A stretch of 47,814 bases of DNA, taken from contig WFNF01000095.1 of assembly GCA_015488775.1 (NCBI GenBank), forward strand, positions 1-47,814, written 5' to 3'. The position numbers and the translations under genes were made by a program. Shown here one piece after another: positions 1,739-6,191 of this stretch (within the stretch, counting starts at the first letter, position 1; each line of letters begins with the position of its first letter). The notes beneath the pieces are model-generated. The model worked only from the letters and a program-made list of their open reading frames with translations, ran no database searches and was not told the DNA's origin. The stretch comes from Helicobacteraceae bacterium (lineage in GTDB: Bacteria > Campylobacterota > Campylobacteria > Campylobacterales > Sulfurimonadaceae).

Positions 1739-3379
1739 ATGTTAGATGTACAAGTATCAAGCTTTATACGCTCAAAAGAAGAGGGAACAAAAGGGGATGA
1801 TGCTTGTGGTCATTTAATCACCGAAGATGATATACTTATAGGTATATTGTGTGATGGTGTTGGCTCTGCTCTCAAGGGTGGGCAAGCCGCACGAGAAAGT
1901 GTAAACTTCTTTTTAACACAATTTAAAAATAGACCAAAATCTTGGGATATTCCTAAGTCACTTACCATTCTTACAGAACATCTAAACAGAAACCTTTTTA
2001 AAGAGTCAATGACTCAATATGACTCCATAGAGTTTCTAACTACATTAAATCTATTTATACTAGATCAGAACAAGCTTTATACTCTAAATCTTGGAGATTC
2101 AAAAACATATCTGATTAGAAAAGATAAAGATATAATTCAACTAAGTACTGATCACAATATGGATGATGATGCCAATTCTCATGTTTTAACCAAGGCGTGT
2201 GGACTTAGTGAAAATATTGAATTTGAGATACAAACATGGGATGTTGATAAATCTGATATTATAATTATGTGTTCTGATGGATTAAGCAATATAATGAGTA
2301 TTGATGAGATTCAAGAGATAGTAAACAAGGGTCTTGGTGCAAAACTTATTGTGAACAGTGCCTCAAGTGAGCTTAAAGATAATGAAAGAGATGATATATC
2401 TCTACAGATATTTAAAATAAATACTCTATCAGAGCAAAGTCCACATAAAGATGCTGATCTAAAGATACCACTAAACCTAAAAGAGTTTCAAATCATAGAC
2501 GGGATGACTCTAATTGAACCTTTAATGAAGCATAGACGCATATGGAAAGTAAAAAAAGACAATACATTTCTTGTAATGAAATTTCCAATGAGTGATGATG
2601 AACAAGCTATAGATGAGTTTGTAAAAGAAGCATGGTATGCAAAACAGATTCACCATAGATCTTTTGGTAATGCTTGGATACCTGCAAAAAGAACTGCAAG
2701 ATATTATTTGATGGAACTTGTTGAGGGAACAAATTTAATGCAGTACCTAAAAAATTCAACTTTATCTATTGATAATACTGTAGAACTTGGAAAATTTTTA
2801 CATAAAGCTCAAGCTCATCTACTAAATTTAGGTTTAGTCCATGGTGATATAAAACCAGAAAATATAATAGTATATAAAAATGATGAAAAAGCTGGAGTAG
2901 TTTTTAAAATGGTTGACTTTGGTTCAATTGTAGAAATTTTTAGTGAAAAATCTAAAGCTGGTACGCCATCGTTTCTTGCACCAGAAAGATTTATGGACTC
3001 AAATATAAACGAAGCAACAGAGATTTTTTCTATGGGGGTAACAATGTATTGGGCTTTAACTAAAAAGTACCCTTATGGCGAAATAGAGCCTTTCCAAAAT
3101 CCAAAGTTTAAAGAGGCAAAAAGACCATCTACATACAACAAAAACATACCAGCTTGGCTTGATTCGATTATACTTAGAGCCATAGCAATAGATACAGAAA
3201 AAAGACATTCTCACTACTCAGAACTATTTTATGAGTTAAAAGATCCACAAAACGTAAAACCTTATTTTTCAAAAGACACCTCATTTATAGAGAAAGAACC
3301 TCTCCTGTTTTACAAAACTGGTTTTTTTGTTTTATTGCTAGTACTATTTATGGTTCTTTTATCTGGTTATACAAATTAA
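1739..3379 (+). CDS. bifunctional PP2C phosphatase / Ser-Thr protein kinase, membrane-anchored
   Basis: A 546-residue fusion. Residues 1-230 are a PP2C-type phosphatase with metal-binding motifs CDGVGS (38-43), LNLGDS (116-121), CSDG (178-181) and DD (218-219). Residues about 250-510 are a Hanks-type kinase: Lys281 in VMK, probable Glu297, catalytic HGDIKPEN (369-375), DFG (393-395) and APE (414-416). The GxGxxG nucleotide loop is not recognisable. One C-terminal transmembrane helix (about 525-543) would anchor it with catalytic domains in the cytoplasm. The ATG follows the narK stop with no gap, implying coupled translation. From memory, similar fusions lie beside NasA-type transporters in other proteobacteria (for example near nasA in Pseudomonas aeruginosa). 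Control of the transporter by reversible phosphorylation is inference. Confidence 0.88.
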   Translation: MLDVQVSSFIRSKEEGTKGDDACGHLITEDDILIGILCDGVGSALKGGQAARESVNFFLTQFKNRPKSWDIPKSLTILTEHLNRNLFKESMTQYDSIEFLTTLNLFILDQNKLYTLNLGDSKTYLIRKDKDIIQLSTDHNMDDDANSHVLTKACGLSENIEFEIQTWDVDKSDIIIMCSDGLSNIMSIDEIQEIVNKGLGAKLIVNSASSELKDNERDDISLQIFKINTLSEQSPHKDADLKIPLNLKEFQIIDGMTLIEPLMKHRRIWKVKKDNTFLVMKFPMSDDEQAIDEFVKEAWYAKQIHHRSFGNAWIPAKRTARYYLMELVEGTNLMQYLKNSTLSIDNTVELGKFLHKAQAHLLNLGLVHGDIKPENIIVYKNDEKAGVVFKMVDFGSIVEIFSEKSKAGTPSFLAPERFMDSNINEATEIFSMGVTMYWALTKKYPYGEIEPFQNPKFKEAKRPSTYNKNIPAWLDSIILRAIAIDTEKRHSHYSELFYELKDPQNVKPYFSKDTSFIEKEPLLFYKTGFFVLLLVLFMVLLSGYTN

Positions 3380-3511: not shown

Positions 3512-4261
3512 TTAGTCTTCTATATAGTAACCTACTCCACTAGCATTTTGAATTATGTCAGTTGGAAGTTTATTTCTAAGTCTCCACACAAGTGTTCTAA
3601 CGGAGTTCTCTGTAGCACCGTCCTCTTCCCAAACATAGTTAATTGACTGATCAAAACTTACTACAAGTCCAAGTTGTGCAACAAGAAGTCTTATGAAAGC
3701 ATTCTCTTTTTTAGTAAGTTTAATTTTTTTATTATGATAAAAAGTTTCACATACACTAATATCTAAATGATAACCATCACCAAAAGGTACTATCGGTTTA
3801 TCAGATATTTTTTTATTATAAAGAAGTTTTTCTAGATTTAACTTATCAACTTTTAAGTCATCTAAATTCTCATTTCTTTTTTTCTCTTCTGAAAATCTAT
3901 AAAGAGCCATCTGTATTGTTGTATGCAAAGATGCGGGATCAAATGGTTTTACTATATAGCCATATGGTTCAGTTTTTTTAGCTTCAGCGATTATATCATT
4001 ATCACTATGTGAAGTTAAAAATATAAATGGCAGTTCATGTTTTTCAGATATATACTGAGCTAGTTTTATACCATCTTGTCTATCTTGTAAAGAGATATCA
4101 ACTATGATAATATTTGGCTCGTAAATTTTTATTTTATTTCTTGCTTGTATGGTTGTATCAGCTATAGAGATGATTTCATAACCTTGTTTTTCCAAAGACA
4201 TTTTTAGATTCATTGCGGTTACTTCATCATCCTCAACAATCAAAACTTTTGTATTTTCCAT
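3512..4261 (-). CDS. response regulator, REC + winged-helix DNA-binding domain
   Basis: Receiver domain with the acidic pair in VEDDE, phospho-acceptor Asp in IIIVDISL, Thr/Ser in LTSH and Lys in IVKPFD, all intact. After a charged linker a C-terminal OmpR-type winged helix follows (LTKKENAFIRLLV to VRTLVWRLRNKL and SGVGYYI). The frame opens at ATG 4273, but I place the start at the fifth codon, 4261: GGAG at 4268-4271 lies 6 bases before it, and the upstream ATG has no SD. That gives 249 residues. No histidine kinase is adjacent, so it is an orphan regulator. A TATAAT at 4302-4307 on this strand could be its promoter. Confidence 0.85.
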   Translation of the reverse strand: MENTKVLIVEDDEVTAMNLKMSLEKQGYEIISIADTTIQARNKIKIYEPNIIIVDISLQDRQDGIKLAQYISEKHELPFIFLTSHSDNDIIAEAKKTEPYGYIVKPFDPASLHTTIQMALYRFSEEKKRNENLDDLKVDKLNLEKLLYNKKISDKPIVPFGDGYHLDISVCETFYHNKKIKLTKKENAFIRLLVAQLGLVVSFDQSINYVWEEDGATENSVRTLVWRLRNKLPTDIIQNASGVGYYIED

Positions 4262-4326
4262 CTCACACTCCATTATATAGTTTTATATATCTATTATCAC
4301 AATTATAAAATATATATATCAAAAAG

Positions 4327-4437: not shown

Positions 4438-4818
4438 TTAGTGTGTAGGAATGTTACGTCTTTTATATGAATCTCTTCTTTTACTTTGCCATAAAGCACT
4501 TAGTTCATCTTTTGAAACTTTTTTAATATTTACAGCTCTTGGAGCTAAACTTCTTAAGCTAGAGGGTTTCATGTATTTAGTTCCTGATGCTTTTAACTTC
4601 TTGTTTTCAATAGTAGCATACTCAAAATTATTGCTACTTTTATTGAAAACCAAGATATCTCCATTTTCACTCTCAACCCAGTTAAGATGTTCATCACCAC
4701 CAAGGTGAGCTCTAAATGTTGTACCATCCGCTTGCTTAAACTCTCTTACACCACTAAATGCTGGTGCGCCAAAAACACTTATACTAAGTGTTAAAATCAT
4801 TAATATTTTTAAAAACAT
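4438..4818 (-). CDS. secreted protein resembling the M6 metalloprotease propeptide
   Basis: 126 residues with an N-terminal signal peptide (hydrophobic 2-16, probable cleavage near Ala18-Pro19). The mature part reads like the N-terminal prosegment of M6 proteases: a DGTTFRAHLGGDE stretch, then HLNWVESENGD and FEYATIENKKL, which correspond to the usual 'Q-DGT, GDE, W-E-DG, YA' pattern. No protease domain follows; instead there is a short basic tail (KRRDSYKRRN). It begins 8 bases after the protease stop with SD AAGGA overlapping that stop, so the two are translated from one message. I infer a stand-alone chaperone or inhibitor for the neighbouring protease. The family assignment is by eye and may be wrong; a signal peptide is clear. 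Confidence 0.65.
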   Translation of the reverse strand: MFLKILMILTLSISVFGAPAFSGVREFKQADGTTFRAHLGGDEHLNWVESENGDILVFNKSSNNFEYATIENKKLKASGTKYMKPSSLRSLAPRAVNIKKVSKDELSALWQSKRRDSYKRRNIPTH

Positions 4819-4826
4819 ATTTTTCC

Positions 4827-6191
4827 TTAATTAGATATAACTAGACTCATTCTATCAGAACTAGCGGAGACATCTCTTAACTTAAAATTACTAAGATTTC
4901 CTAAACTATCGTTATAGTCTTTTATCTCATCAACATTATTTTTATAATAAAGGTTTTGTTGATCACCTTTAAGACTCGAACCATCCTTCGAATTATCTAT
5001 AGCATTAGACAATAAAGTTTTTGCTTCTACTAAATCAACACCTTTATTGTCTTTATCATCTTGAATATTATTTGACTTTAAACTATTACTTAAAACAGTT
5101 TTATTTATGTGCCATAAAGCTATACCCCCATCAAAGTTTTTATTAATAATATTTAAACCTCTATCATAACCACTTGCTTGTCTATTTTCCATAAGCAAAT
5201 ATTCACATCTGTTTAATGGTATTTTTAAAATATTATAATCAATTGAGGTAGATGAGTTTAAATAGTAAAAACTATCAACTACATTTTCAACTATCTCTGG
5301 TTCAATCCAACCAACTTTATATTTTGACCAAGCCATCATATGAACAGGTGTTTGACCTGGCTGTTCACTTAAAGTTTTTTGAGCCCAAGAACCATTACCC
5401 ATTAAACCGAAGTATCCTATACCACCATGTGATGCATAACCTATTTTATAAAGATCAGGAAGTTCAAAAGCCGCGTGACCTAACTCATGTGCAATAATTC
5501 CAATAGTAGCATCATGATCACCATGTCTTTCACCAAATATAGCGTAAGTTCCATCCCCATCACAGGACATCATCTTTATACCATTTAAGCTAAAACTTTG
5601 ATCAATACACTTTTGATGAGCCCATACTCCATTTTTACTATTACTCCCACTATATGCATCTTCATTTCCAGCAACAATAAAAAGAAATATAAGTTCATCC
5701 TTACTAAGTGAACCATCACCATCTACATCAAAAGAGGCAAAATCTATATTATTTTGAATCTGTTTTATAGCATCTTTCAAATCACTTTGTATACTTAAAG
5801 AAGCTCCAGAATCTGGATGATTTTTATTTAATCTAATCTTTTTAACACCTATATTTTTAAAACTAAATTTTGAGTTTGATATCTCATTGTAGTAGTTGTT
5901 AACACTAACACTATTTTTAGCAAAAATTTTATCTTCCCAAACTGATTTAGCTGATACAAAAGTTTGATTATTGTATTCAAGTAAGATTACTAAAGTTGGT
6001 CTATCTTCAATTTTTGTAAAATCTCTATAAACTTCTTCATCACATTCACCTGGTTCAACTATAGGTGTAGGGCTACTATTTTTAGAGCCTTTTTCACCTG
6101 CACCACTATTTACTTCTATCTCAGATATTGGTTTAGAGTCACAAGATATAAAAAAAATACCTATAATTATCATTAATATAGTTTTATTCAT
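4827..6191 (-). CDS. M6 family metalloprotease, lipoprotein
   Basis: 454 residues. The N terminus is a lipoprotein signal with lipobox FISC (Cys17), followed by a polar linker to about residue 60. The M6 peptidase domain starts at RPTLVILLEYNNQ, with the family's VNNYYNEISNSKF. The zinc site is HELGHAAFELPD (His235, Glu236, His239, Asp246), followed by the GLMGNGSW turn region. An EF-hand-like calcium loop, DVDGDGSLSKDE (155-166), is inserted before the active site. M6 enzymes (immune inhibitor A type) are secreted zinc endopeptidases. Unlike typical members, this one has no propeptide between signal and catalytic domain; the propeptide-like sequence is the next gene downstream. Lipidation predicts a membrane-attached, extracytoplasmic enzyme. 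Confidence 0.85.
   Translation of the reverse strand: MNKTILMIIIGIFFISCDSKPISEIEVNSGAGEKGSKNSSPTPIVEPGECDEEVYRDFTKIEDRPTLVILLEYNNQTFVSAKSVWEDKIFAKNSVSVNNYYNEISNSKFSFKNIGVKKIRLNKNHPDSGASLSIQSDLKDAIKQIQNNIDFASFDVDGDGSLSKDELIFLFIVAGNEDAYSGSNSKNGVWAHQKCIDQSFSLNGIKMMSCDGDGTYAIFGERHGDHDATIGIIAHELGHAAFELPDLYKIGYASHGGIGYFGLMGNGSWAQKTLSEQPGQTPVHMMAWSKYKVGWIEPEIVENVVDSFYYLNSSTSIDYNILKIPLNRCEYLLMENRQASGYDRGLNIINKNFDGGIALWHINKTVLSNSLKSNNIQDDKDNKGVDLVEAKTLLSNAIDNSKDGSSLKGDQQNLYYKNNVDEIKDYNDSLGNLSNFKLRDVSASSDRMSLVISN

What the first reader, a model, noticed from the sequence alone, without database searches (positions are those of the whole stretch)
4438..6191. M6 metalloprotease split from its propeptide
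The protease goes from lipobox directly to the M6 catalytic domain. The propeptide-like sequence (DGT, GDE, W-E-x-G-D, YA pattern) is a separate secreted protein from the next gene, 8 bases away. M6 enzymes normally carry this segment in cis. A trans-acting inhibitor or chaperone that keeps a lipid-anchored protease inactive until both are exported would be an unusual zymogen arrangement.
Basis: partly seen in the sequence, partly recalled or inferred. Interest (0 to 1): 0.6.

Follow-up and report, generated by a model that had tools for sequence, protein, structure and literature searches.

The report
Protease and propeptide as separate genes
In one group of sulfur-cycling bacteria a lipid-anchored M6 protease has lost the pro-region that its relatives carry, and that pro-region is instead a separate secreted protein made from the next gene, which probably controls or folds the enzyme from outside.

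Summary
The window encodes an M6 metalloprotease lipoprotein (4827-6191, minus) with no pro-region, followed 8 bases later by a 126-residue secreted protein (4438-4818, minus). A profile of the mature small-protein family finds the N-terminal pro-regions of M6 proteins from at least six other phyla (E down to 3e-13; reversed decoys no better than 0.2; profile-profile 99.6%, E 2e-24). The domain matched no Pfam or NCBIfam family.

The arrangement is conserved. All 36 M6-positive genomes among 200 relatives encode the small protein; among the other 164 there are only two marginal matches. It lies immediately downstream of 35 of 45 M6 loci, always protease first. The M6 tree fits one cis-to-trans change. 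In two genomes the genes lie on different contigs, yet both belong to matching subclades.

What the small protein does to the enzyme is inferred. Best reading: a split zymogen whose pro-region acts in trans as folding helper and/or latency inhibitor. Stand-alone propeptide-like inhibitors are known for other protease families, so this is a new variant of a known kind.

The parts
4827..6191 (-). M6 metalloprotease lipoprotein, 454 aa, without a pro-region
   Evidence: TIGR03296 E 7.8e-47, PF05547 E 4.4e-17; InhA2 zymogen 4yu5/4yu6 is the only strong solved relative
6141..6152 (-). lipobox FIS-C, lipidated Cys at aa 17
   Evidence: sequence; 43 of 48 paired M6 proteins have a lipobox-like Cys by a simple pattern, and at least two of the five it missed show one by eye
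5973..6002 (-). first strand of the M6 domain (RPTLVILLEY, aa 64-73)
   Evidence: sequence and TIGR03296 boundaries
5448..5489 (-). zinc site HELGHAAFELPDLY, intact
   Evidence: sequence; HELGH and PDLY invariant in the 37-row alignment of M6 domains
4438..4818 (-). stand-alone secreted pro-region protein, 126 aa
   Evidence: profile match to cis M6 pro-regions; conserved next to M6
4768..4818 (-). signal peptide (aa 1-17), likely signal peptidase I cut VFG|APAF
   Evidence: sequence; the same small-residue|[AVT]-x-[AT] site in nearly all trans and most cis members
4582..4767 (-). conserved pro-domain core, APAF...QADG...GDEHLNW...EYA...L..SG
   Evidence: the part homologous to cis pro-regions; predicted beta-domain in both settings
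4453..4515 (-). basic helical tail (SKDELSALWQSKRRDSYKRRN)
   Evidence: L-W-x-x-K-R conserved in the family; predicted helices; positively charged tail in all sampled pairs

Best explanation
The pair is a split zymogen. An ancestral M6 protease carried its pro-region in cis. In the lineage leading to the Campylobacterota enzymes the pro-region was moved to its own gene directly downstream, and the catalytic domain gained a lipoprotein signal. Both proteins are exported separately: the protease by signal peptidase II and anchored by lipid, the pro-region by signal peptidase I. They then meet in the envelope, where the pro-region binds the protease in trans to help it fold and/or to hold it inactive until the pro-region is removed. 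Shown by sequence: homology, loss of the cis pro-region, conserved pairing, single origin on the tree. Inferred: binding, latency, folding help, release. A possible latency device, untested, is the freshly cut N-terminus (A/V)-P-A, whose alpha-amino group could bind the catalytic zinc as described for the InhA2 zymogen (recalled knowledge, not checked here).
For: Mature-only profile of the small family matches N-termini of cis M6 proteins of Bacillota, Bacteroidota, Nitrospinota, Chloroflexota, Synergistota and Verrucomicrobiota at E 3e-13 to 1e-2, while among 2750 ORFs nothing else but stand-alone partners scores below 0.9 and reversed decoys reach at best 0.23. Profile-profile comparison 99.6%, E 2e-24 over 65 columns. 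Same motif register from the signal-peptidase site in both. 36 of 36 M6 genomes have it, and 35 of 45 M6 loci have it immediately downstream on the same strand; spacing mostly -4 to +11 bases. Phylum sample: 9 of 397 with the small protein, 10 of 397 with M6; the one unmatched is a weak, different M6. One cis-to-trans change on the M6 tree. Distances of the two proteins agree (Mantel r 0.68, no permutation above 0.22), and two unlinked pairs follow matching subclades. Net charges are opposite (M6 median -29.5, small +5.5). A bacterial prodomain in trans can both fold and block its protease (CspB, PMC3567191).
Against: No binding or inhibition data. The AlphaFold2 read-through chain gives pTM 0.75, about what the protease domain alone would give, so docking is not predicted with confidence. 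The cis model is likewise unsure about its pro-region. Ten M6 loci have no adjacent partner, including a second M6 in this genome. The protease gene comes first, so the enzyme is made before its partner. I found no test of whether cis pro-regions of this type inhibit. The Mantel agreement is also expected from shared vertical descent.
Confidence: 0.75

Rival explanations
1. A dedicated inhibitor of the Spi or propeptide-mimic type. The small protein descends from a pro-region but is now only an inhibitor that protects the cell from premature activity; the protease folds without help.
For: Protease-inhibitor gene pairs with the inhibitor gene alongside are known (SpeB-Spi; staphopain-staphostatin; PMC3462683). 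Stand-alone propeptide-like inhibitors are known for subtilases (SUB1-ProM; PMC6993865). Gene order here is protease first.
Against: In the subtilase and SpeB cases the protease keeps its own cis propeptide; here it is absent in the paired M6 proteins examined, so a folding role has no other carrier.
Confidence: 0.25
2. A foldase only. The domain is needed to fold the M6 enzyme (as lipase-specific foldases are for lipases) and does not block the active site.
For: Small, separately exported, encoded next to its client, and found in every genome that has the client.
Against: The M6 enzyme with a solved pro-form is a latent zymogen (InhA2; 4yu5/4yu6 are titled zymogen). Orphan M6 genes exist, although always in genomes with a copy of the small gene elsewhere.
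Confidence: 0.15
3. The shared domain is not a pro-region but an accessory domain (for example substrate or surface binding) that stays with the mature enzyme in both the cis and the trans form.
For: No functional data on cis domains of this type were found; AlphaFold2 shows a compact beta-domain, not an extended pro-peptide; docking unresolved.
Against: In cis it sits between signal peptide and catalytic domain, the usual pro-region place, joined by a long poorly ordered stretch (pLDDT under 50 at residues 54-93 and 102-111 of the cis model), and its start register from the signal-peptidase site is fixed.
Confidence: 0.12

Closest known systems
InhA2 (immune inhibitor A2) M6 zymogen, PDB 4YU5/4YU6
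   Same: Homologous M6 catalytic domain; only strong solved match by sequence (E 5e-32) and by fold (E 1e-16 to 3e-11); has a latency-conferring pro-peptide
   Different: Pro-peptide is in cis and showed no sequence match to the small protein; InhA2 has further domains the window protein lacks
TIGR03296 M6 proteins with the same pro-domain in cis (e.g. Nitrospinota L110, Bacillaceae L095, Bacteroidales L099)
   Same: Same catalytic domain and same pro-domain with identical motif register
   Different: One polypeptide, pro-domain first; here two genes, protease first, protease lipidated
SpeB-Spi (Streptococcus pyogenes) and staphopain-staphostatin pairs
   Same: Protease with a small specific partner encoded by a neighbouring co-transcribed gene (PMC3462683)
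   Different: Cysteine proteases; the inhibitors are thought to act in the cytoplasm; the proteases keep their own propeptides
SUB1-ProM and other stand-alone subtilisin propeptide-like proteins
   Same: A free-standing homologue of a protease propeptide, encoded near the protease genes (PMC6993865)
   Different: Serine proteases that retain a cis propeptide; the free copy is an extra inhibitor
CspB subtilase of clostridia with prodomain supplied in trans
   Same: Shows that a prodomain given as a separate chain can fold and block its protease (PMC3567191)
   Different: An experimental split in a serine protease; not a natural two-gene M6 system

Membership tests
M6 metalloprotease (TIGR03296) | match above the curated cut-off | tested here: met
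   160.5 bits against 110.8
M6 metalloprotease (TIGR03296) | HExxH zinc site followed by PD-Y | tested here: met
   HELGHAAFELPDLY at aa 235-248
M6 metalloprotease (TIGR03296) | proteolytic activity | not testable with these tools
   needs an enzyme assay
InhA-type M6 zymogen | pro-peptide in cis | tested here: not met
   lipobox Cys at 17, only a low-complexity linker to the catalytic domain at 64; the same in paired M6 proteins elsewhere
Pro-domain family of cis TIGR03296 proteins | sequence homology to the pro-region between signal peptide and M6 domain | tested here: met
Pro-domain family of cis TIGR03296 proteins | same predicted secondary structure | tested here: met
   strands in the same order in the trans (420-477) and cis (8-50) models; the cis part has lower confidence
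Trans-acting propeptide (inhibitor or chaperone) | conserved genetic pairing with the protease | tested here: met
   36/36 genomes, 35/45 loci adjacent; phylum sample agrees
Trans-acting propeptide (inhibitor or chaperone) | physical binding to the protease near its active site | tested here: inconclusive
   read-through chain pTM 0.75, no coordinates
Trans-acting propeptide (inhibitor or chaperone) | inhibition or folding of the protease | not testable with these tools
   needs biochemistry
Aspartate-switch zymogens (GDE Asp as zinc ligand) | invariant Asp in the pro-region | tested here: not met
   Asp of G-D-E is Asn in 6 of 36 trans and 2 of 22 cis members

The most novel reading that the evidence does not exclude
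A natural two-gene zymogen: an M6 protease that has wholly lost its cis pro-region and depends on a separately exported pro-region, whose signal-peptidase-made N-terminus (A/V-P-A) plugs the catalytic zinc in trans, so that latency is set by export and meeting in the envelope rather than by cleavage of the enzyme itself.
Probability: 0.3. Interest if true: 0.75.

Novelty: new variant of a known kind. Interest (0 to 1): 0.58.

Why it matters
Pro-regions almost always travel in cis, and known stand-alone propeptide homologues are extra inhibitors of proteases that keep their own. Here the cis copy appears to be gone in a whole clade, with related enzymes that still have it for comparison. That makes a clean natural experiment on what a pro-region does when it need not be cleaved off. 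It also points to a widespread pro-domain of M6 proteases that matched no Pfam or NCBIfam family, and gives a function lead for many small secreted proteins of unknown function in Sulfurimonas, Sulfurovum, Sulfuricurvum and relatives.

Tried and rejected
Direct search of the single small protein against Pfam, NCBIfam and PDB found nothing; homology only shows with family profiles, and even the profile has no PDB relative. A viral-contig scan with the single M6 found no relative, and the small-protein alignment gave no usable pattern. Plasmid tblastn with the small protein and blastn with the pair found nothing. Aspartate-switch latency through the GDE motif was considered and disfavoured, since Asp is Asn in 6 of 36 members. 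The response regulator next door (3512-4273) as a conserved third member was rejected: only distant regulators occur in a few other loci. The Cj0814-like NCBIfam match of the M6 (E 0.0017) is far below its cut-off and was set aside. Two marginal small-protein matches without M6 (G081 with stops, G106) were judged spurious or remnants.

Full report
WHAT IS THERE. On the minus strand, 4827-6191 encodes a 454-residue protein and 4438-4818 a 126-residue protein, 8 bases apart, protease first. The larger matches TIGR03296 at E 7.8e-47 over aa 68-346, and PF05547. It starts with a lipoprotein signal (Cys 17), then about 45 low-complexity residues, then the catalytic domain from aa 64, with HELGHAAFELPDLY at 235-248. 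The smaller has a signal peptide with a likely cut at VFG|APAF and no Pfam, NCBIfam or PDB match by itself.

CONSERVATION OF THE SMALL PROTEIN AND ITS PAIRING. In 200 related genomes the small protein has a match in 38, and TIGR03296 in 36. All 36 M6 genomes have the small protein. The two small-only matches are marginal (E 0.001 with stops inside; E 0.007 within an unrelated 300-aa frame). Fisher p is 1e-37, without correction for kinship. Of 45 M6 loci, 35 have the small gene immediately downstream on the same strand. Spacing is mostly -4 to +11 bases, several being -4 overlaps. A separate even sample of 397 Campylobacterota genomes gives 9 with the small protein and 10 with M6; the extra one is a weak match in a 1337-aa frame. 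Many loci share the neighbour glyQ, as in the window.

HOMOLOGY TO M6 PRO-REGIONS. A scan of 84,980 species genomes with an M6 alignment gave 80 loci, both Campylobacterota and other phyla. A profile built from the stand-alone proteins, signal peptide removed, was run over 2750 ORFs of these and five plasmid loci. It hit the stand-alone partners and the N-termini of 22 long M6 proteins, from Bacillota, Bacteroidota, Nitrospinota, Chloroflexota, Synergistota, Verrucomicrobiota and a Pseudoalteromonas plasmid, at E 3e-13 to 0.01. All other ORFs scored above 0.9, and reversed decoys at best 0.93 (full mature profile) or 0.23 (core profile). Profile-profile comparison of 36 trans with 22 cis sequences gives 99.6% and E 2e-24 over 65 columns. 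Positions 2-3 (P-A), 12 (Q), 14-15 (D-G), 24-25 (G-D), 30 (W), 36 (G) and 50 (Y) of the mature chain are shared in the same register. In the cis proteins the domain lies between signal peptide and M6 domain. The mature trans protein (about 100-110 residues) is about as long as the whole cis pro-region. The cis sequences matched no consistent Pfam family.

ORIGIN. In a tree of 87 M6 domains the paired enzymes and the Campylobacterota orphans form one group of 54 rows (SH-aLRT 93), next to cis enzymes of Bacillota. The cis and trans labels need one change. The pair also occurs in a SAR324 contig (L126), in a contig titled Bathymodiolus heckerae thiotrophic gill symbiont (L102) and in an unnamed MAG (L131), nested in the same group; transfer or misbinning are both possible. 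Because the order is protease first, a simple stop codon between pro-region and enzyme cannot explain the split; the pro-region was moved.

COEVOLUTION. Distances among the two proteins over 46 pairs correlate (Mantel r 0.68, best of 2000 permutations 0.22). Shared descent alone would also give this. More telling, in two genomes (G033, G047) M6 genes and small genes lie on different contigs, yet for both proteins these two genomes are each other's nearest relatives. This fits trans action without linkage, though the pairing is my assignment and G033 has several M6 copies. M6 domains are strongly acidic (median net -29.5 over 420 aa) and the small proteins basic (median +5.5).

STRUCTURE. Only single chains could be folded. 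In locus L125 the two genes are in frame with 9 bases between, so reading the single TAA as a residue gives one chain: protease, then signal peptide as linker, then pro-domain. AlphaFold2 with 37 rows gives mean pLDDT 91.5. The pro-domain is mostly at 90-95, with strands at 420-424, 430-438, 441-446, 451-455, 460-467 and 470-477, then helices 484-493 and 497-515. pTM is 0.75, roughly what the protease domain alone would contribute, so the mutual placement is not confidently predicted. The cis protein L110 gives pLDDT 82 and pTM 0.78 with strands at 8-11, 17-24, 29-33, 38-42 and 47-50, the same order, at lower confidence. Foldseek finds the InhA2 zymogen for the M6 part and nothing convincing for the pro-domain.

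HOW IT MOST LIKELY WORKS. Shown: homology, loss of the cis copy, pairing, single origin on the tree, separate export signals. Inferred: the two chains meet in the envelope and the pro-region helps the M6 fold and/or holds it latent. From established knowledge, the InhA2 zymogen is kept latent by the N-terminal segment of its pro-peptide, whose alpha-amino group binds the zinc; this was recalled and not checked in a held paper. The fixed (A/V)-P-A start at the signal-peptidase site in both cis and trans members makes the same device conceivable here, but it is a lead only. An aspartate switch through G-D-E is less likely since Asp is Asn in 6 of 36 trans members.

COMPARISON. Two-gene protease-inhibitor units (SpeB-Spi, staphopain-staphostatin; PMC3462683), stand-alone subtilisin propeptide-like inhibitors (SUB1-ProM; PMC6993865) and a prodomain working in trans (CspB; PMC3567191) are known. 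I found no paper describing a stand-alone M6 pro-region, with the limit that only open-licence papers were searched. What differs here is that the protease itself has no pro-region left. I file it as a new variant of a known kind.

Noticed in passing
L002 (G000:C41:60354-64253): The same genome has a second M6 lipoprotein of 845 aa with a long N-terminal extension that looks repetitive, intact HELGH, and no small partner nearby; it also lies next to a response-regulator gene, convergently. Whether it borrows the window's small protein is open.
   Followed up: partly
G033:C4 (L067) and G047:C45 (L070): Orphan M6 genes are followed by a conserved 176-aa protein (MNVNTALSAYSQ...SLSIDIRTSSGDLIELDFNNEK), which may be a different partner.
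   Followed up: no
L065 (G033:C56) and L069 (G047:C34): Stand-alone pro-region proteins unlinked to any M6, with a longer C-terminal tail ending in ILNTKSS-x-WKEVLKEK.
   Followed up: partly
window 1739-3379: One 546-aa ORF appears to join a PP2C-type phosphatase region and a protein-kinase region with a C-terminal membrane segment, next to a transporter gene; judged by eye only.
   Followed up: no
L080 (G025:C377): A cis-type M6 fragment with an N-terminal pro-domain-like stretch (core profile E 0.014) in a genome that also has the trans pair; may be a contaminant contig.
   Followed up: partly
L164, L165: Sulfurimonas M6 proteins of 777-791 aa with long N-terminal extensions and no partner, branching at the base of the trans group.
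   Followed up: no
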